IMG/VR virus record: IMGVR_UViG_3300009151_000281
Coordinates: 1 to 29,139 of that record
Length of the DNA stretch: 29,139 bases
DNA from: a virus
Reading direction: 5' to 3' (one strand)
In this document: in pieces, positions 1 to 22,108 of the stretch
Layout of the letters: each line of letters opens with the position of its first letter
Numbering within the stretch: position 1 is the stretch's first letter
The notes under the pieces: generated by a model
Seen by the model: the letters and a program-made list of their open reading frames with translations, nothing else
The model's database searches: none
Told to the model about the DNA's origin: nothing
Made by a program: the position numbers and the translations under genes

Positions 1-678
1 CTAGAAGAACTTAAAATAAGAAACGAACTAGTTAATGGGATATATAAAGGAGATATAAGAATTAAATCTAAATATATATTACCAAATCTATCTGATATTG
101 TAGTTAGTGGATATTTTAATTGTTCTAGTAATAAACTTACATCTTTAGAAGGAGCTCCTAAAGAAGTTGGTGGAAATTTTAATTGTTCTAGTAATAAACT
201 TACATCTTTAGAAGGAGCTCCGCAAAAAGTTGGTGGAAATTTTAATTGTGATGATAATAACCTTACATCTTTAGAAGGAGCTCCTAAAGAAGTTGGTGGA
301 AATTTTAATTGTGATGATAATAACCTTACATCTTTAGAAGGAGCTCCTAAAGAAGTTGGTGGATATTTTTATTGTGATGATAATAACCTTACATCTTTAG
401 AAGGAGCTCCGCAAAAAGTTGGTGGAAATTTTTATTGTTCTAGTAATAAACTTACATCTTTAGAAGGAGCTCCTAAAGAAGTTGGTGGAAATTTTAATTG
501 TGATAATAATAACCTTACATCTTTAGAAGGATCTCCGCAAAAAGTTGGTAGAGATTTTTATTGTGATGATAATAACCTTACATCTTTAGAAGGAGCTCCG
601 CAAAAAGTTGGTGGATATTTTTATTGTTTTAATAATCTAGTCAAATTAGACTATAAAGCATGGTTGACAAAACAATAA
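1..678 (+). CDS. Repeat protein with 21-residue leucine-rich-like repeats, 5'-truncated
   Basis: The frame is open from base 1 to the stop at 676-678, so the start lies outside the window. After about 45 residues of lead-in come eight consecutive 21-residue units of the form LTSLEGAP-(K/Q)-(E/K)-VGG-x-F-x-C-x-x-N-x, then a short divergent tail (LVKLDYKAWLTKQ). Regularly spaced Leu, Val, Phe and Asn suggest a solenoid like the leucine-rich or pentapeptide-type repeats found in many phage and bacterial surface or interaction proteins. No signal peptide or membrane segment is visible in the part seen. It sits just upstream of uvsY but has no obvious functional link to recombination. The repeat class is clear; function is unknown. 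Confidence 0.7.
   Translation, partial: LEELKIRNELVNGIYKGDIRIKSKYILPNLSDIVVSGYFNCSSNKLTSLEGAPKEVGGNFNCSSNKLTSLEGAPQKVGGNFNCDDNNLTSLEGAPKEVGGNFNCDDNNLTSLEGAPKEVGGYFYCDDNNLTSLEGAPQKVGGNFYCSSNKLTSLEGAPKEVGGNFNCDNNNLTSLEGSPQKVGRDFYCDDNNLTSLEGAPQKVGGYFYCFNNLVKLDYKAWLTKQ
136..639 (+). repeat. Eight tandem 63-bp repeats inside the truncated gene
   Basis: Units begin at 136, 199, 262, 325, 388, 451, 514 and 577. Each starts with CTTACATCTTTAGAAGGA and most are near identical at the DNA level. Two variable slots are shuffled between units: PKEV versus PQKV, and CSSNK versus CDDNN. This mosaic suggests recent expansion and exchange between units. Confidence 0.9.
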
Positions 679-1150: not shown

Positions 1151-3049
1151 ATGAAAGATATTCAAATTACAAAAGTTAATGAAGTTCATTTGAGAATTAA
1201 CTCAGATGATTCTAGCATTATTCAGGAAATTAATGAATACTTTACATTTGAAGTACCGGGAGCTAGATTTCATCCAAAGTTTAAAGCTAAATTATGGTCA
1301 GGAAAAATTTCTATCTTTTCAGCTCAAACAAGATTACTTCCGTATGGACTACTTTTCGAACTTATTAAGTTTTGTGAAGTTAGAAATTATACATTTGATA
1401 TTGATAAAGAAGTTAGTAATAAACCTGTCATAACTAGACAATCTCTTATAGATTACATTAAGTCTTTAAAACTTACAGTCCGAGGAGAACCTGTGGAAAT
1501 GCGTGATTACCAATTAGATGCATTCATTCATGCGATTCAAGAAGGTCGAAGTTTAACTTTAAGTCCTACGGCTTGTCTTGATGGTAATACAGAAATCATT
1601 GCAGAAATCAATAAATCTCCTTATTATTATAAGTTTAAGGAATTGTATAATGAATATAACAATGGAATTATTATAAAATTTCCGACTCCAGATGGATGGA
1701 AATCTGTTATAGGAGCATACAAAAAATATGGTCCGGGAAGAAAGATTGAGTTTAGCGATGGTACTGAAACTATAGGATCAGATTATCATCAGGTTCAAAA
1801 AGAAGGTAAATTTGTTACACTAGAATCTTTAAAAGTACACGATATTTTAGATCATAAAAATTCAAGAATATCTAAAATTATTCCAGTACCTCCTCAAGAT
1901 TGGTATGATTTTAGTTTAGATTATGATAAAGAATGCTATTATCAAAATGGAATACTTCATCATAATTCTGGTAAAAGTCTAATTATCTATACTTTGATTC
2001 GATGGTATCTAGATAATTGTAATGAAAAAATACTAATTATTGTGCCATCAGTTTCACTTTGTCATCAAATGAAGTTAGACTTTGAAGATTATAGTTCAAG
2101 TGATGACAATTTTGATGTTGAATCTGAAATTCATTTGATTTATTCAGGTCAAGAGAAATTAGATGTTTCACAAAGAATTTTAATTTCAACGTGGCAATCC
2201 ATCCATACACAACCCCGAAATCAATTCTTGAAATTTGGTATGGCAATTTGTGATGAGGTACATCTCGCAGTCGCAAAAAGTCTTAATACTATCATGAATA
2301 ATCTAACCAACGCTCAATATAGAATTGGCACAACAGGTACTCTTGATGGAGCTAAATGTAATGAACTAGTTCTTGTTGGTAACTTTGGTCCAGTCAATAG
2401 AGTTATTACAACAAAAGAGTTAATGGATTCTGATACAATTGCTCAATTGAAAATTAGATGTCTTGTTCTCAATCATAATAATGAACTTAAAAAGATTGTA
2501 TCAAAAATGGAATATCAAGATGAAATCAATGCTATTATAAGTCATGTTGGAAGAAATGATTTTATCACTAAGTTAGCCATAGATCAAAAGGGTAATACAT
2601 TAGTTTTATTCAATCGGATTGAAGATCACGGGAAACCTCTATATAAAAAGGTATGTGATATAGCTTCAATAAATTATCCCGATAGAAAAATCTTTTATGT
2701 ATCCGGAGAAGTCAATGCAAAGACAAGAGAAGAAATTAGAGCTATTGCTGATAAAGAAAGTAATTGTATCATATTGGCATCTGTGGTTTTTGCAACGGGA
2801 ACGAATTTAAAAAATATTCATACTATTATTTTTGCAGCTCCTACTAAATCTCAAGTAAGGGTTCTTCAATCAATTGGAAGAGGTCTTAGAAAATCCGATA
2901 ACGGTAAATCAACAACTCTTTATGATATATCCGATAACTTCTCATGGAAATCAAAGAAAAACTTCACTATGAAACATGCCAAAGAAAGAATTGATATATA
3001 CAATAGAGAACAATTTGATTATAAAATTTTTGAAATAGATCTACCATAA
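1151..3049 (+). CDS. uvsW: UvsW-like recombination helicase containing a mini-intein
   Basis: The 632-residue precursor is an SF2 helicase: Q-motif-like MRDYQLDAF near 117, Walker A read across the insertion as SPTA/SGKS, motif II CDEVH, motif III-like GTTGTLDG, and motif VI QSIGRGLRKSD near the C-terminus. A 131-residue insertion (residues 142-272) has intein features and sits exactly in Walker A. Without it the host protein is 501 residues, close to the 503 of T4 UvsW. UvsW remodels branched DNA and R-loops and helps switch from origin-dependent to recombination-dependent replication in T4. Without protein splicing the ATPase site would be broken. The stop codon overlaps the next ATG by one base (TAATG). 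Confidence 0.92.
   Translation: MKDIQITKVNEVHLRINSDDSSIIQEINEYFTFEVPGARFHPKFKAKLWSGKISIFSAQTRLLPYGLLFELIKFCEVRNYTFDIDKEVSNKPVITRQSLIDYIKSLKLTVRGEPVEMRDYQLDAFIHAIQEGRSLTLSPTACLDGNTEIIAEINKSPYYYKFKELYNEYNNGIIIKFPTPDGWKSVIGAYKKYGPGRKIEFSDGTETIGSDYHQVQKEGKFVTLESLKVHDILDHKNSRISKIIPVPPQDWYDFSLDYDKECYYQNGILHHNSGKSLIIYTLIRWYLDNCNEKILIIVPSVSLCHQMKLDFEDYSSSDDNFDVESEIHLIYSGQEKLDVSQRILISTWQSIHTQPRNQFLKFGMAICDEVHLAVAKSLNTIMNNLTNAQYRIGTTGTLDGAKCNELVLVGNFGPVNRVITTKELMDSDTIAQLKIRCLVLNHNNELKKIVSKMEYQDEINAIISHVGRNDFITKLAIDQKGNTLVLFNRIEDHGKPLYKKVCDIASINYPDRKIFYVSGEVNAKTREEIRAIADKESNCIILASVVFATGTNLKNIHTIIFAAPTKSQVRVLQSIGRGLRKSDNGKSTTLYDISDNFSWKSKKNFTMKHAKERIDIYNREQFDYKIFEIDLP
1574..1966 (+). mobile_element. Mini-intein in the Walker A motif of UvsW (no endonuclease domain)
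   Basis: The insertion begins with Cys (block A, CLDGNTEI) directly after SPTA. It holds a block-B-like segment with GSDYHQV followed by LKVHDIL, a block-F-like YDFSLDYDKECYY, and ends with Leu-His-His-Asn (block G) directly before Ser of SGKS, the required +1 nucleophile. At 131 residues there is no room for a homing endonuclease. Cys1, the block B His, the penultimate His, the terminal Asn and Ser+1 are all present, so it is predicted to splice. The conserved block B Thr appears replaced by Ser or Asp depending on alignment. Confidence 0.93.
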
Positions 3050-3456
3050 TGAGTAAAGAACTTTTAGAATATGTTAATAAACTTGATGTTAGAGTGTTTA
3101 CAACTATATCTGGCAGACAATTAATAGGAGAAGTAGAGTTTGACGAAAATAAAAGGATTATTTTACATTCACCTTTACAATTTATTAAATCTTATGATCA
3201 AGAGAGTAAGAAAAGTATAATTACCTTGGTTCCTCCAGTAATAGAAAATAGTTCATGTATTAAATTAAGTTCAACTGCGATTGAATCTGAAACTATAGCT
3301 GATATAAGACTCAAGAAGGTCTATTGTGATCAACTAATTTATAATCAATTGGAATTAATGATTGAAGGATTAGAACTAGATAATAAACAATCCAATGATT
3401 CTTTGGAGGAATCTGATGACTATTTTAAATCAGTTATAGATAATTGGAAGAAGTAA
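3049..3456 (+). CDS. Small protein with possible Sm-like N-terminal barrel, function unknown
   Basis: 135 residues. The first half (VRVFTTISGRQLIGEVEFDENKR, then ILHSPLQF) has the alternating pattern and G-x-x-x-G-E-V-x-F-D turn typical of Sm/Hfq-like barrels: 'use of a site, G-x-L-x-G, then D'. The C-terminal quarter is acidic and probably disordered. It is translationally coupled to uvsW by a one-base overlap. I do not recognise a specific family; an Sm-like fold is an inference from pattern only. Confidence 0.6.
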   Translation: MSKELLEYVNKLDVRVFTTISGRQLIGEVEFDENKRIILHSPLQFIKSYDQESKKSIITLVPPVIENSSCIKLSSTAIESETIADIRLKKVYCDQLIYNQLELMIEGLELDNKQSNDSLEESDDYFKSVIDNWKK

Positions 3457-3477
3457 TGTAATTATTACTTGAACTTC

Positions 3478-3563
3478 ATCCGTAGGATGATCCCGAAGGG
3501 ATAATTAATGTTTTATAAGATATCATGTTACTTAAATTAGCCTGCTGCTATCCCTTCGGGATA
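3478..3563 (+). promoter_or_regulatory. Three consecutive RNA hairpins, the last with a UUCG loop
   Basis: Hairpin 1 is CATCC-GTA-GGATG (3478-3489, allowing for one shared base). Hairpin 2 is ATCCC-GAA-GGGAT (3490-3502). Hairpin 3 is TATCCC-TTC-GGGATA (3549-3563), which can also be read as C(UUCG)G, the very stable tetraloop known from T4 intercistronic regions. Hairpins 2 and 3 are also complementary to each other, so an alternative long-range pairing is possible. A T-rich stretch follows hairpin 3. This may be a terminator, processing or attenuation region between the uvsY-uvsW unit and the sigma factor unit. Confidence 0.6.
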
Positions 3564-3728
3564 TTTTCAGGTTATTTTATTAAGTTTTTATTGATTTTGT
3601 TTTATTGGTTTCAACATGATTCACATAGAATTTTTATTGAATTTTTAATATTTTCTATAATAATTATAACGGTTTTTCAAATTGATGTAAAGCAAAAAAT
3701 GATCAAATCTAAAAATAAATTTGATTAG
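3525..3728 (+). CDS. Doubtful small hydrophobic ORF
   Basis: A 67-codon frame starting at an ATG without Shine-Dalgarno sequence or clear promoter. The translation is rich in Phe, Ile and Leu with one or two possible membrane segments (around residues 13-30 and 38-52) and a basic tail. The frame runs through the third hairpin of the preceding element, and the T-rich composition gives hydrophobic codons by default. It may be non-coding leader or terminator-associated DNA. It is listed because the 323-base gap between neighbouring genes holds no other candidate. Confidence 0.2.
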   Translation: MLLKLACCYPFGIFSGYFIKFLLILFYWFQHDSHRIFIEFLIFSIIIITVFQIDVKQKMIKSKNKFD

Positions 3729-3744
3729 ATATAACAAAAAATGA

Positions 3745-3773
3745 TTTACTTTCTTCATATCTTATAGTATAAT
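3745..3773 (+). promoter_or_regulatory. Early-type promoter for the late sigma factor gene (leaderless)
   Basis: TTTACT, 17-base spacer, TATAAT. Counting seven bases from the end of the -10 puts the first transcribed base at 3780, the A of the start codon. Confidence 0.75.
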
Positions 3774-3779
3774 GAAATT

Positions 3780-4451
3780 ATGGAAATATCAATAGAATCT
3801 AAACAAAAGACCAGGAAGACTAGAAAGAAAAACGATGCCGATTACGTGGATAATGAACAATTTTCAATAGCCGTAAGTGATTATGTTTCAATAGCTAAGA
3901 ATGCTATTGCAGAAGGTTTAGAACCTCCCATGGTACCAAATTATATTGCGGAATGTTTTCTTAAAATTTGTAATGGTTTATCCCGTTCCCCTTCATTTAC
4001 TTCCTATACCTATAGGGAAGATATGGTTATGGATGGAGTTGAGAATTGTTTAAAAGCTATTCTCAATTATGACAAGTCAACACCTACAAGAACCGGAAAG
4101 CCTAATCCATTTTCATATTTTACACAAATGACATTTTTTGCATTCTTGCGTCGAATTGAAAAAGAAAAGAAGCAGACAAAAATTAAGCAAGAATTTACTG
4201 AACATGGAGGTATTGATTCATTTGCAGATTTTGATGAAAATTCTGATATGCATTCCATGGTGGGAGAAAGTATGGTAGAAAGAATTAGACAAAAAAACGA
4301 TACTTTTTATAAAATAGAAAATGAACTAGCTCCTATTTTTGAGATTTCCAAACCAAAACGAATGTCAACAAGACGATCAGCAAAGAAGGAAGTTCATCCT
4401 CTTGCTGCATTATTTGATTATGATATGGTAGATATTGAAGAAGGTGTATGA
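3780..4451 (+). CDS. 55: Late-transcription sigma factor, gp55-like
   Basis: 223 residues, somewhat longer than T4 gp55 (185). Shared pattern: an early VDNEQ stretch, a central ICNGLSRSPSFTSYTYREDMVMDGVENCLKAILNYD-type region cognate to the minimal sigma-2 region of gp55, then NPFSYFTQMTFFAFLRRIEKEKK. The C-terminal HPLAALFDYD resembles the short hydrophobic tail by which T4 gp55 binds the gp45 sliding clamp. In T4, gp55 redirects host RNA polymerase to TATAAATA late promoters; such sites occur in this window at 17135 and 17587. The gene overlaps gene 47 by four bases (ATGA). It has its own promoter with a predicted leaderless transcript. Confidence 0.85.
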   Translation: MEISIESKQKTRKTRKKNDADYVDNEQFSIAVSDYVSIAKNAIAEGLEPPMVPNYIAECFLKICNGLSRSPSFTSYTYREDMVMDGVENCLKAILNYDKSTPTRTGKPNPFSYFTQMTFFAFLRRIEKEKKQTKIKQEFTEHGGIDSFADFDENSDMHSMVGESMVERIRQKNDTFYKIENELAPIFEISKPKRMSTRRSAKKEVHPLAALFDYDMVDIEEGV

Positions 4452-5521
4452 AATTAGCAATTTGCACAGATACACATCTGGGAATTAAGAATGGATCTGA
4501 TATTTTTCTTAATTATGCAGAACAATTCTATTCCGAGGTATTCTTTCCTTATTTGTTAAAGGAGGGAATTAAAAGGATTCTTCATCTTGGTGATTACTTT
4601 GATCATAGACGATACGTAAACTATAAAGCTCTGAATCGCAACAGAACAATGTTTCTGGAGAAGTTGGTTGAATATGGAATGATCATGGATATCATTCCAG
4701 GTAATCATGACTGTTTTTATAGAACAACAAATTCACTCTGTTCTCTCACAGAGATTCTCAAGTATTGTCCAAACAATGTTAATATTTACATGGAACCAAC
4801 TGTACTTGATTATGACGGATTAAAACTTGGATTAATTCCATGGATCAATGAAGAGAATTATAACGATACTTTAAATTTCATTCAAACATGCGCAGCTCCT
4901 ATTATTGGAGCTCATCTTGAATTATCAGGATTTGAAATGATGAAAGGTTGTGGTGCCGCATCTCATGGCATGGATGCGAGTATATTTTCACGATTTGAAA
5001 TGGTTTTATCTGGCCATTATCACACAAAGTCCTCGAAAGGAAATATTCATTATCTTGGTGTGGCTTTTGAACAAACCTGGTCGGATTGTAATGATCCAAA
5101 GTTTTTTCATATTCTTGATACTGAAACACGCAAGTTAAAATCGATTCGTAATAAGAATTGTATCTATCATAGATTAATATACGATGATAGTATTTTATCC
5201 GAAGAAGATATTTTACGAGTAAATCTTTCTCACATTAAAAATGGATTTGTTAAGATAATAGTGGCTGCCAAGAAAGATCCAATCATATTTGAGAAATTTC
5301 TTGATAAGGTTATCGCGACCAATCCTTTTGAATATAAAATAGTAGAAAATCTGCAAGAGTATAATTCGGAAAATGTAGAAGATGATATTATTGCTTTGTC
5401 GGATACACCATCATTATTAAATTCCTATGTTGAATCAGTTGAAACTGATTTGGATAAAGATCGAATTAAAATCCGATTGCAGGAGTTATATACAGAAGCT
5501 CAGAATTTAGACACCTTATGA
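4448..5521 (+). CDS. 47: gp47 recombination nuclease subunit (Mre11/SbcD-like)
   Basis: 357 residues. The calcineurin-like phosphoesterase motifs are in order: DTHLG (D8, H10), GDYFDHR (D49), GNHD (N86, H87), GAHLE (H165) and GHYHT (H190, H192). With gp46 it forms the exonuclease that resects double-strand ends for recombination-dependent replication. It overlaps both neighbours by ATGA, which indicates coupled translation of 55, 47 and 46. Confidence 0.93.
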   Translation: MKLAICTDTHLGIKNGSDIFLNYAEQFYSEVFFPYLLKEGIKRILHLGDYFDHRRYVNYKALNRNRTMFLEKLVEYGMIMDIIPGNHDCFYRTTNSLCSLTEILKYCPNNVNIYMEPTVLDYDGLKLGLIPWINEENYNDTLNFIQTCAAPIIGAHLELSGFEMMKGCGAASHGMDASIFSRFEMVLSGHYHTKSSKGNIHYLGVAFEQTWSDCNDPKFFHILDTETRKLKSIRNKNCIYHRLIYDDSILSEEDILRVNLSHIKNGFVKIIVAAKKDPIIFEKFLDKVIATNPFEYKIVENLQEYNSENVEDDIIALSDTPSLLNSYVESVETDLDKDRIKIRLQELYTEAQNLDTL

Positions 5522-14439: not shown

Positions 14440-15392
14440 TTATCTAAGAACCCATGCCGTATCTTCTGGTTGTTCAAAGAAATATTGTTGACCCTCACCT
14501 TCTTTATCATAGAGTTTTTTACCTTTTCTAGCTTTGGCTCTATTTTGATTTTCTTCAATTGAAACTATCTTACCTAAAGAGAAATCCTCTCCTGGACAAT
14601 CAAGTGAGCTTATATTAATTATCCCATTATTCCAGCATCTTATATTAAGTTTTTTATTTCTTCTTATTTCTAGAGAAGCCTCTGACACTGTAATTCCTAA
14701 TATATAATTAGAATCGGGGCATTCTATACAAAATTTATTAATAGTTCCATTGGTCCAACTAACATACCCTGTTTAGCTTTACTCTGTTTTTGATTTATAT
14801 TTTCACGATCATGGTGACCCTTAATATAATCAGGACCTGGACACTCTTTTGAATATGTTGATATAGTACCATTAGTCCATAAGATCATATCTATATTAAT
14901 ATCATGCAATCTTGTATGAAAATCTTCTGATGTAGTAAACCCTTTATAAAAATCAGGTCCGGGAGATGTTCTCGCTCGCTTGTTTACAGTTCCATTAGTC
15001 CAATAGGGACTGTTATTTTGAAATTCTGTAATTTTGCGGTTCGCCTCTTCGGTACGAGTTATACAATAAAATGAAATACCACCATTGGATTTATTTGTAT
15101 ATCTAGGATGTCTTGCGGCATTAACTGTTGTAAAAGACCATGTTTCATATGCAATAGCTTCAGGACCTGTTGCAAAATGCTTAATGAATAAGATTTCAAA
15201 TGAATCTAATCCGTCCCTTTCAATGTATTTTTTGATATATTCTGATGATGTTAAATATCCAAATTTCATCATCAATATTGAAGAATCACATGTAAATTTT
15301 GAATATTTAGATTCTATATATAATTCCATGGACGGTCTGTGTCGTATCCCATAAACATAAGGATCTTTACATGTTAAACCTTCGGGTATATA
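14440..15392 (-). pseudogene. Decayed GIY-YIG-type homing endonuclease gene
   Basis: Read on the - strand from 15392: KDPYVYGIRHRPSMELY, then YLTSSEYIKKYIERDGLDSFEI, then AIAYETWSFTTVNAARHPRY-TNKSNGG, the pattern of phage GIY-YIG-like homing endonucleases. Three to four C-terminal WTNG...ECPGPDFIKG units follow (WTNGTVNKRARTSPGPDF, WTNGTISTYSKECPGPDY, WTNGTINKFCIECPDSNY, CWNNGIINISSLDCPGEDF). Two lesions are visible: no in-frame ATG at the expected N-terminus (first is M at 15329), and a -1 frameshift around 14757-14765 that truncates the first frame at 14724 and puts the last two units in another frame ending at 14440. It sits between the clamp and clamp-loader units, a typical place for free-standing T4 HEGs. 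Confidence 0.75.
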
Positions 15393-19084: not shown

Positions 19085-20578
19085 ATGATTGAATTTTACA
19101 CTTGTGTTGACCGCCATATGAATAATATTCTCTATAGAGGATATGATGCAGATGGACGAAAGATTTACAATAAAATCAAGTATAAGCCTACAATGTATCT
19201 CGAAGCAAAAAGTTCAGATACTCTTTGGCATACACTTGAAGGTACACCAGTTGAAGAAATGAAATTTGAGTCAATGAGTGATTGTAGAAACTTTCAAAAG
19301 ACTTATGAAGATATCAAGTCTTTTAAGATTTATGGAAATGATCGGCATATCATATCATATATTCAAGAAAAGTTTCCAGATAAGATTCAATTTAAGTCAA
19401 GCAGAATTGAGATTTGCTTCCTAGATATAGAAAATATGGTTTCTTCTACGGGAGAATTTACGGAGTCTACAGTTGCCGATCAAGAAATTACTCTCATCGG
19501 TTTGAAAGCATCTACTCATTCTCATTATATTCAGTGGGGGACAAAACATTTCGATCAAGACAAGTCTCTAGTTCCTCATATTAATCTTGAGCGTAGAGAA
19601 TTTGATTCTGAACACGAAATGTTATCAGATTTTATTACATGGTGGTCTGACCCCATGAATACACCTGATGTAATTACTGGATGGAATACAAAATTATATG
19701 ATGTTCCATATTTAATCAATCGATTATCAAGAGTTTTAGGATCAGATGAAGCTAAAAGATTATCTCCATGGAATAATATTTCTCAAAGAACTAAGATAGA
19801 TAAAACTGGCAAGGACTGTACATTCTTTGATATCAGTGGAGTTCAACAATTAGATTATCTTGATTTATTTATTAAATTCAGTTTAAATACTTACGGTAAA
19901 CAAGAGTCACACAAGCTAGATTTTATTGCCGATCTCGTCCTTGGAGAAGGTAAGATTAATTATGGAGAATCTGGCTATTCAAATCTTACTGAACTATATG
20001 AAAAGGATTATGATTTCTACTGTTCATACAATCTCGTCGATATTGAACTTATTACAAAGCTTGAAGAAAAGCTAGGAACAATCAATCTAGTATTTACTTT
20101 ATCATATTATGCAGGTACTAATTATAATGATACATTAGGAACTGTTGCAATTTGGGATGCTATTATCTTTAGATATCTTGCTAATAAACGTATTGCAATT
20201 CCTCAAAATGAAGTTTCTTTTAAAACTGAATATGAAGGAGGTTATGTTAAAGAAGCTCACAAAGGCCGGTTTGATTGGGTAATGACATATGATTTAAATA
20301 GTCTATATCCAAATACTATCATTCAATATAATATGAGCCCAGAAACTATTGTACCTCATATGAAAGTTCCGGGAATTACACCAGAAAAGATATTAGAAAA
20401 TATTGATAGAAAACAATGGTCTCCTGAGGAAAACTTAGCAATAGCAGCAAATGGTTGTTGCTTTAAACGAGATAAACAGGGGTTTCTTGGAGCTCTTATG
20501 GAAGATATCTATATGAATAGAGTTCTTGTAAAGAGACGAATGATTGAAGCTCAGAAAGAATTAGAATTGTTAAAATAA
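19085..20578 (+). CDS. 43A: DNA polymerase gp43, N-terminal part (exonuclease and first half of palm)
   Basis: 497 residues of a family B polymerase. Exo I is FLDIENM (D114, E116), Exo II ITGWNTKLYDVPYL, Exo III YCSYNLVDIELI, and polymerase motif A YDLNSLYP (D403). The frame stops at 20576-20578 after KKRMI-like RRMIEAQKELELLK, before the fingers and motifs B and C. The rest is found from about 20781 on. The two parts total about 857 residues against 898 for T4 gp43. Split gene 43 forms are known from some Aeromonas T4-like phages, where the two polypeptides work together. Whether here two proteins are made or an intervening RNA is removed is not certain. Confidence 0.9.
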   Translation: MIEFYTCVDRHMNNILYRGYDADGRKIYNKIKYKPTMYLEAKSSDTLWHTLEGTPVEEMKFESMSDCRNFQKTYEDIKSFKIYGNDRHIISYIQEKFPDKIQFKSSRIEICFLDIENMVSSTGEFTESTVADQEITLIGLKASTHSHYIQWGTKHFDQDKSLVPHINLERREFDSEHEMLSDFITWWSDPMNTPDVITGWNTKLYDVPYLINRLSRVLGSDEAKRLSPWNNISQRTKIDKTGKDCTFFDISGVQQLDYLDLFIKFSLNTYGKQESHKLDFIADLVLGEGKINYGESGYSNLTELYEKDYDFYCSYNLVDIELITKLEEKLGTINLVFTLSYYAGTNYNDTLGTVAIWDAIIFRYLANKRIAIPQNEVSFKTEYEGGYVKEAHKGRFDWVMTYDLNSLYPNTIIQYNMSPETIVPHMKVPGITPEKILENIDRKQWSPEENLAIAANGCCFKRDKQGFLGALMEDIYMNRVLVKRRMIEAQKELELLK

Positions 20579-20780: not shown

Positions 20781-22108
20781 ATGAATATAGAAAAAAGAAA
20801 AAGAGAATTGGAAATTGAAATTGATCGACTTAATAATGAACAAATGGGTCTTAAAATCCTAAACTAATGGGACCCTCTATAGCAATATAGAGGTAAACTT
20901 CATGTGAATTCAGGGAAGGCTTTAATATGCTAATCCTGAGCCAAGCTAGAAATAGAAGGTGCAACGACTATCCGTAAGGAGTACACTCAAGTGAGTGGAA
21001 GCGCATGACAACTCTCTGAGTTGAAGATATAGTCTGATCTTATAGGAAACTATAAGCAGTAGTAATACTGAGTATGAAATTAACGAATCATACTTAACAT
21101 AAATGATTAAATTCCTGCTATGGAGCATTTTCAAATAGGTTTTTCCGATATTATAATATTGACATTGCAGAAGCTATTACGTTATCTGGTCAATTAGCAG
21201 TACAAACAGCTGAACATGCCGTAAATAATTTCTTATCAACCTCATTAAAAGATTCTACTTTTAATGATCGAATCCTTATGTCCGACACTGATTCAATTGC
21301 CACTCATCTCGGAGATGTCGTTGATAAATGCAAGCCAAGAGATCCTCATCAATTTCTTTTAGATTTTGGAAGAAGTGCTTTAGAACCTGTTATTGAAAAA
21401 GCATATTCTGAATTAGCTTTGAAAGTTAATACATATAAGAACACTATGGTTATGAAAACAGAAAAAATTTGTTCTGTTGGAATTATCCAAGCGAAAAAAA
21501 GATACATATTCAATGTAATTTCAAGTGAAGGGGTAGTCTATAAAGAACCTAAACTTGTTATGAAAGGTATTGAGGCTATTAAATCTTCAACACCTAAGAT
21601 TTGTCGAACTGAATTTAAAAAGTTATTTAAACTTCTTATGGCAGCATCTGAATTGGAAATTCAGACAGAGGTGGAACGATTTCGAGAAGAGTTTGAACAA
21701 GAACCAATTGAAAAGATTGCATTTCCTCGTGGTCTTACTAATATTAAAAAATATATTCAAAAGGTAGGAGCAAATGGAATTAAAGTTCCATATATCAAAG
21801 GAACCCCTATGAATAGTAGGGCATCTATCATGTATAATCACTTAATAAAAACTATGGGATTGACAAACAAGCACCAATATATTAAAGGAGGTGATCGTAT
21901 TAAATATATCTTCCTTCGTAAAGGCAATCCTACAGGAGAAAACGTAATTGCGTTCCTTGATAAACTTCCAACAGAATTTGATCTTGACAAATATGTAGAT
22001 AGAGATTTATTATTCGAAAAGACATTTATCTCCCCATTACAATTAATTTTGGACGCAATTAACTGGAAGGCTATACCATTATCTGATCTTAGTGATTTCT
22101 TTTGTTAA
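20781..22108 (+). CDS. 43B: DNA polymerase gp43, C-terminal part, interrupted by a group I intron
   Basis: Exons 20781-20860 and 21106-22108, joined in frame to 360 residues. The first exon encodes MNIEKRKRELEIEIDRLNNE, then QMGLKIL; the second continues LNSCYGAFSNRFFRYYN. The join rebuilds motif B (QMGLKILLNSCYGAFSN) exactly as in the family. Motif C is MSDTDSI near 85, followed by thumb sequences. The C-terminal LSDLSDFFC resembles the T4 clamp-binding end (SLDFLFG). The start is uncertain: the ATG at 20781, or the in-frame ATG at 20700 that would add an endonuclease-like tail. Without splicing, the first exon ends at a stop at 20866-20868 and the region up to 21106 has stops, so splicing is required. 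Confidence 0.85.
20861..21105 (+). ncRNA. Group I intron (about 245 nt, no ORF) in gene 43B
   Basis: Core signatures are present: TAATCCTGAGCCAAGC (P4 region), CAACGACTATCC (5' strand of P7) and GAAGATATAGTCTGA (3' strand of P7, hallmark of IA2 introns such as T4 td). The 5' exon ends in T and the intron ends in G. The exon end TCCT pairs with GGGA at 20869-20872 with a closing U-G pair, giving P1. These splice sites restore the conserved motif B of the polymerase. No endonuclease is encoded inside. Confidence 0.88.

What the first reader, a model, noticed from the sequence alone, without database searches (positions are those of the whole stretch)
1574..1966. Mini-intein inserted exactly in the Walker A motif of UvsW
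A 131-residue insertion with Cys1, a terminal His-Asn and Ser+1 splits SPTA/SGKS, so helicase activity depends on protein splicing. Removal leaves a T4-sized UvsW. It lacks an endonuclease, so it is either fixed or depends on one elsewhere. Inteins in phage helicases are known; one in the UvsW P-loop is notable, and splicing could act as a switch for late replication.
Basis: partly seen in the sequence, partly recalled or inferred. Interest (0 to 1): 0.75.

Follow-up and report, generated by a model that had tools for sequence, protein, structure and literature searches.

The report
Mini-intein in phage UvsW ATP-binding loop
A phage DNA-repair helicase gene carries a 131-residue self-splicing protein insert exactly in its ATP-binding loop; related phages carry the same insert whole, split in two around a DNA-cutting gene, or split with only a relic of that gene, so the site shows how split inteins can arise or heal.

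Summary
UvsW is window 1151-3049. Residues 142-272 (1574-1966) form a complete class-1 mini-intein: Cys1, block-B His72, penultimate His, terminal Asn, Ser+1. It separates SPTA from SGKS in Walker A. An AlphaFold model (pLDDT 96) matches the VidaL intein at Z 19.2, 1.6 Å over 130 of 131 residues. Excision would leave a 501-residue UvsW with SPTASGKS, a motif found intact in about 40% of the intein-free relatives checked.

A junction scan of IMG/VR found 12 distinct viruses with an intein at this exact site. Four are contiguous and endonuclease-free (window type). Three have a short N-half split off. Five carry LAGLIDADG-type inteins. In two of the split ones an antisense putative homing-endonuclease gene lies between the halves; their N-terminal domains are related but their C-terminal regions differ. 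In the third, window's closest split relative, only a 53-codon relic remains. Similar synonymous divergence in intein and extein points to vertical inheritance, so the contiguous/split state probably changed in place; the direction is unresolved.

No evidence supports a late-replication switch. The intein is a new member of a known kind (VidaL/Cat-like). The same-site series and possible natural re-fusion are the interesting parts.

The parts
1151..3049 (+). uvsW precursor gene, 632 aa (with stop codon)
   Evidence: ORF and Pfam/PHROG matches
1151..1573 (+). N-extein, UvsW residues 1-141, ending SPTA
   Evidence: Pfam UvsW_N at 3-85; alignment with intein-free relatives
1562..1573 (+). first half of Walker A (SPTA)
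   Evidence: alignment to SPT[AG]SGKS relatives
1574..1966 (+). mini-intein, 131 aa, C...HHN, no endonuclease domain
1574..1597 (+). block A, CLDGNTEI, with nucleophile Cys1
   Evidence: sequence; NCBIfam intein_Nterm weak match, below cut-off
1610..1615 (+). position equivalent to the natural split / endonuclease insertion point of L006 and L104 (after strand 2, site S1)
   Evidence: alignment of IntN ends CLDGNTLIEAEISD* and CLDGNTIVDAEISD*; strand 7-12 in the model
1742..1798 (+). block B, KIEFSDGTETIGSDYHQVQ, with SxxH and His72
   Evidence: His72 invariant in all 7 relatives
1901..1966 (+). blocks F and G, WYDFSLDYDKECYYQNGILHHN, with His130 and Asn131
   Evidence: invariant in the family
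1967..1978 (+). second half of Walker A (SGKS), Ser+1
1967..3049 (+). C-extein, UvsW residues 273-632 and stop
   Evidence: ResIII and Helicase_C

Best explanation
Window 1574-1966 is a functional class-1, cis-splicing, endonuclease-free mini-intein of the VidaL/Cat type, inserted between residues 4 and 5 of SPTA|SGKS in Walker A of a T4-like UvsW helicase. It should excise itself soon after translation (Cys1 acyl shift, transesterification to Ser+1, Asn131 cyclisation) and leave a 501-aa UvsW with an intact P-loop. Its long-term persistence is explained by position: only a precise deletion restores an active helicase. The same site in relatives is part of a homing cycle: a putative homing-endonuclease gene inserted after intein strand 2 turns the contiguous intein into a trans-splicing one with a 14-28 residue N-half, and the endonuclease can later decay. 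Shown: sequence, fold, site, the relatives and the relic. Inferred: that it splices, that the helicase needs splicing, and that the inserted genes home.
For: All splice-junction residues are present. Profile matches solved inteins: VidaL 3.4e-10, CatC 1.2e-8, gp41-1 1.3e-7. Model pLDDT 96.1; top structural match VidaL, Z 19.2, 1.6 A over 130/131 residues. Intein-free relatives lack the segment and 35 of 83 read SPTASGKS, exactly the predicted spliced motif. The insert is conserved with UvsW: pN/pS 0.34 for intein and 0.24 for extein between window and L005, with equal pS 0.59. L005, L099 and L103 carry contiguous copies; L006, L104 and L109 carry split copies. The L006 gap matches the C-terminal 53 residues of the L104 antisense ORF (58%, 8e-21, one in-frame stop).
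Against: No splicing was measured. The block-B Thr is Ser and the usual block-F His is absent, so rate and efficiency are unknown. NCBIfam intein_Nterm scores below its cut-off (17.6 against 24.5 bits) and Pfam finds no domain in the insert. The pN/pS values are near saturation for synonymous sites.
Confidence: 0.93

Rival explanations
1. The intein is dead (splicing lost) and the window phage either uses a truncated UvsW or none.
For: No splicing assay; block-B Thr to Ser and block-F changes depart from the commonest motifs.
Against: All nucleophiles and the C-terminal His-Asn are intact in every copy of the family; purifying selection on intein and extein is similar; Ser+1 and the full helicase motifs are kept. 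A dead insert in Walker A would free the downstream helicase to decay, which is not seen.
Confidence: 0.04
2. Splicing is conditional and acts as a switch for late replication.
For: Position in the ATP site makes activity depend on splicing; UvsW acts late in T4 (established knowledge).
Against: No cysteine, redox or temperature feature specific to regulation was identified; about 80 close intein-free relatives do without it; VidaL, the nearest characterised intein, is fast (PMC13014065).
Confidence: 0.05
3. The contiguous intein of window and L005 is a re-fused (healed) split intein: the common ancestor with L006 and L104 was split by an endonuclease gene, which was lost by a deletion that put the two halves back in frame.
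For: Intein tree ((window,L005),L006),L104 with 95/91 and 98/95 support on the two deeper forks. L006 and L104 share the split point and the homologous endonuclease gene or relic. VidaL, taken as outgroup, is also split. Counted on this tree by hand with equal costs, a split ancestor needs 2 changes and a contiguous one 4. Near the junction window and L005 have lost residues (K28, T30 of alignment A3) that most split copies keep.
Against: Independent insertions at the same point are expected of a site-specific element, so equal costs are doubtful. The shared junction residues of L006 and L104 could also come from co-conversion during homing (perm p 0.0036). L103 and L099 are contiguous in the other clade.
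Confidence: 0.35
4. The split copies derive from contiguous ones: an antisense putative endonuclease gene invaded a window-type mini-intein at strand 2.
For: Contiguous copies occur in both intein clades; the genes between the halves in L104 and L109 differ in their C-terminal domains, as expected of separate invasions; the mosaic in L006 fits a co-conversion tract around the insertion.
Against: Most near-junction residues shared by L006 and L104 look ancestral rather than newly acquired, and synonymous identity is not raised in the tract.
Confidence: 0.5

Closest known systems
VidaL intein (PDB 6vgv)
   Same: Best sequence-profile hit (3.4e-10) and best structural match (Z 19.2, 1.6 A). Cys-dependent class 1. 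In the crystallised construct the residues after the intein are SGK and those before Cys1 (mutated to Ala) are SG, so the flanks resemble the same position of a P-loop.
   Different: VidaL is naturally split with a 16-aa N-half (PMC13014065); the window copy is contiguous. About 20% identical. The host gene of VidaL could not be verified here.
AceL-TerL, GOS-TerL and the consensus Cat intein (PDB 6dsl)
   Same: Atypically split phage inteins with short N-halves; CatC is a sequence hit (1.2e-8), 32% identical over about 99 columns.
   Different: Their host gene is TerL; AceL and GOS TerL split after helix 1 (site S2), whereas L006 and L104 split after strand 2 (S1); the window copy is not split.
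gp41-1 split intein (PDB 6qaz, 6riz) and the 'fractured genes' of Dassa et al. 2009
   Same: Phage helicase inteins with split genes and an associated homing endonuclease family; fold match Z 16.9.
   Different: Canonical split near the C-terminal side, other gene. The paper itself is not held, so its orientation and gene lists could not be checked.
LAGLIDADG inteins at the same UvsW site (L096, L097, L105)
   Same: Identical insertion point, C...HN|SGKS.
   Different: Start CH rather than CLD, 18-21% identical, carry Hom_end/LAGLIDADG domains.
P-loop inteins of mycobacteriophage TerL (PMC5050341)
   Same: Insertion in Walker A, a known hotspot: about 70% of inteins lie in ATP-binding proteins.
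   Different: Other gene; the common TerL1-a site lies between Lys and Thr of GK|T, not before SGKS.

Membership tests
Class 1 intein | Nucleophile Cys/Ser at position 1 | tested here: met
   Cys1; kept in all copies whose N-half is held
Class 1 intein | Block-B TxxH | tested here: inconclusive
   SDYH: His72 invariant in 7 of 7, Thr replaced by Ser (Ala or other in relatives)
Class 1 intein | C-terminal His-Asn and Cys/Ser/Thr +1 | tested here: met
   HHN|S in all 7
Class 1 intein | Hint (horseshoe) fold | tested here: met
   pLDDT 96.1; 62 PDB matches at E <= 0.001, the 50 listed inteins or intein-like domains
Class 1 intein | Intein-free alleles of the host gene exist | tested here: met
   83 intein-free UvsW loci checked; over 3,000 phage records with UvsW and no intein hit in any of them
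Class 1 intein | Autocatalytic excision and ligation | not testable with these tools
   needs expression
Homing (maxi-) intein | Internal homing endonuclease domain | tested here: not met
   131 aa, no linker domain; no GIY-YIG (five related contigs, window not included) or HNH (window and the same five) family match
Atypically split intein (VidaL type) | Homology to VidaL/Cat | tested here: met
Atypically split intein (VidaL type) | Encoded as two polypeptides with a short IntN | tested here: not met
   window copy is one open frame; met in relatives L006, L104, L109
UvsW helicase | UvsW_N domain, SF2 motifs, uvsY neighbour | tested here: met
   (uvsY at 701-1147)

The most novel reading that the evidence does not exclude
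The contiguous mini-intein of the window lineage is a naturally re-fused split intein: a homing-endonuclease insertion had broken uvsW and its intein in two, and the lineage later lost the endonuclease and fused the halves back in frame, which would make split inteins reversible in nature.
Probability: 0.35. Interest if true: 0.7.

Novelty: new member of a known kind. Interest (0 to 1): 0.52.

Why it matters
How inteins become split at unusual positions is an open question. Here one insertion site holds, in closely related viruses, the whole intein, the intein split around a putative endonuclease gene, and the split intein with only a relic of that gene left, together with intein-free alleles and LAGLIDADG inteins. 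That makes the order of events testable by sampling and by swapping halves. The 14-residue N-halves of L006 and L104 are one residue shorter than the shortest natural one cited in PMC13014065 (15 aa), so they are also candidate labelling tools.

Tried and rejected
The L006 split as a sequencing frameshift: both halves are in the same frame and the 120-nt gap is homologous to the L104 antisense gene, so it is a real relic. A Hint domain in the L046 insertion: profile comparison gives 3.9% probability, so the resemblance I saw by eye is dropped. Group I intron in L046 or L006: none at Rfam thresholds. A cellular source: the genome-contig scan with the intein profile found no relative. Further endonuclease copies: scans with the L104 and L109 proteins found only themselves in IMG/VR. 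The mosaic test for co-conversion is significant by permutation, but outgroup residues show that much of the signal is ancestral similarity, so it is not used to set a direction. Papers: no held paper that names both intein and UvsW, as far as read (three of seven), reports a UvsW intein; the key split-intein papers (Dassa 2009, Bachmann 2015, the PNAS 2020 VidaL paper) are not held, so earlier mention of a UvsW or T4-like helicase intein cannot be excluded.

Full report
Observation. The frame 1151-3049 (+) is UvsW: Pfam UvsW_N, ResIII and Helicase_C, PHROG_16 at 1.8e-87, and a UvsY gene directly upstream. Residues 142-272 are foreign to every helicase profile. They start CLDGNTEI and end HHN, followed by Ser+1 of SGKS. 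The stretch is identical in two other contigs of the same virus.

What it is. A profile of seven relatives hits VidaL, CatC and gp41-1 inteins in PDB at 3.4e-10 to 1.3e-7. The model has pLDDT 96.1 and superposes on VidaL with Z 19.2 and 1.6 A over 130 of 131 residues; the other top rows are inteins too. Cys1, His72, His130, Asn131 and Ser+1 are in place. The block-B Thr is Ser. There is no endonuclease domain.

Where it sits. It lies between SPTA and SGKS in Walker A. In 83 intein-free loci the motif reads SPTG (47), SPTA (35) or SPTS (1) before SGKS, so excision restores a natural motif and a 501-aa protein.

Who else has it. A junction pattern, HN|SGKS[LF]IIY, scanned over 2.9 million viral contigs gave 15 stretches, 12 distinct viruses. 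Contiguous mini-inteins: window virus, L005, L099, L103. Short-IntN split: L006, L104, L109. LAGLIDADG type: L096 (=L108), L097, L102, L105, L107 (the last with a broken frame). L103 also has a second, split intein at its DEAH-type box (VDE|C...SN|CH). A scan for UvsW in general returned more than 596 relatives; of the 80 best, none has an intein at this site. The intein searched against 50,697 phage records found only weak matches (best E 0.04), in TerL, UvsX and unnamed genes, none in UvsW.

The split relatives. L104 reads SPTG|CLDGNTIVDAEISD-stop, then a 388-aa ORF on the opposite strand, then MSISKHTFKELYD...HHN|SGKS. L109 has the same plan with a 28-aa N-half and a different ORF. The two ORFs share an N-terminal/central domain (30% over 137 aa, 4e-11) but their C-termini differ: HNH-like by eye and similar to phage proteins of unknown function in L104, GIY-YIG/MUG113-like in L109 through its homology to the TerL-associated ORF of the window virus. 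Calling them homing endonucleases is inference from arrangement and domain similarity. L006, the closest split relative of the window, has CLDGNTLIEAEISD-stop, a 120-nt gap and MELKKHTFKNLYD. The gap encodes, antisense, 53 residues 58% identical to the end of the L104 ORF, with one in-frame stop (8e-21; DNA 73% over 164 nt). It is a relic.

Inheritance. Between window and L005, pS is 0.59 for intein and extein alike; between window and L006 it is 0.59 for the intein C-half and 0.61 for the C-extein. Extein and intein trees agree on ((window,L005),L006). The intein therefore travelled with its gene in this clade, and the contiguous/split state changed in place. The values are near saturation, so old transfers between these lineages are not excluded. 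Direction is open: a split ancestor is more parsimonious at equal costs with VidaL as outgroup, whereas repeated insertion of a site-specific element is biologically cheap. Permutation tests find that L006 resembles L104 near the junction and window/L005 further away, which fits co-conversion or retained ancestral residues.

Mechanism. Cis-splicing by the class-1 route is inferred from residues and fold. Dependence of the helicase on splicing follows from the position in Walker A. Regulation is not supported.

Novelty. P-loop inteins, VidaL-type inteins and endonuclease genes between intein halves are all known kinds (PMC13014065, PMC11766414, PMC5050341). The crystallised VidaL construct has SG before and SGK after the intein, so a P-loop intein at the same step was probably already known in split form. 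New here, as far as the held literature shows, are UvsW as the named host, the contiguous form, and the same-site series.

Noticed in passing
window 20842-21056 (+): Group I intron (RF00028, 96.3 bits) between two exons of the gp43 DNA polymerase gene: 19085-20578 and 21278-22108 match adjacent parts of PHROG_262.
   Followed up: partly
L124 (74-kb contig of the window virus) 1257-5203: TerL appears interrupted three times: a P-loop split intein with a same-strand homing-endonuclease-like ORF (1645-2685), a contiguous intein before CLMLDE, and another short-IntN split intein before CEFIG.
   Followed up: partly
L124 7747-11235: The gp20 portal ORF (1162 aa) holds two intein-like inserts, the first with an HNH_3-like stretch.
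   Followed up: no
window 14724-15329 (-): Antisense ORF between the sliding clamp and clamp loader genes, weak match to a homing endonuclease family (PHROG_314, 0.00037).
   Followed up: partly
L046 1280-2260: uvsW broken at a different place (after IYSGKEKDLSN) around a 249-aa ORF related to homing endonucleases that interrupt gp17 in Aeromonas phages; no intron or intein found there.
   Followed up: partly
L103 6049-6522: Second intein in the same uvsW gene, split, between DE and CH of the Walker B box.
   Followed up: partly
L127 (Vibrio phage vB_VmeM-32) 2849-5924: An unannotated split intein in the gp41 helicase position (GVN|C... and HHN|TGKS) around an endonuclease-like ORF related to that of L109.
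   Followed up: partly
window 102-636: Tandem repeat with a 63-bp period, seen as off-diagonal self-matches of 85-92% identity.
   Followed up: no
L099 13046-13250: uvsW ends in an unrelated tail (NYRKFYFGDIYVKIYDDEDVILTD...), so this gene is probably interrupted a second time.
   Followed up: no
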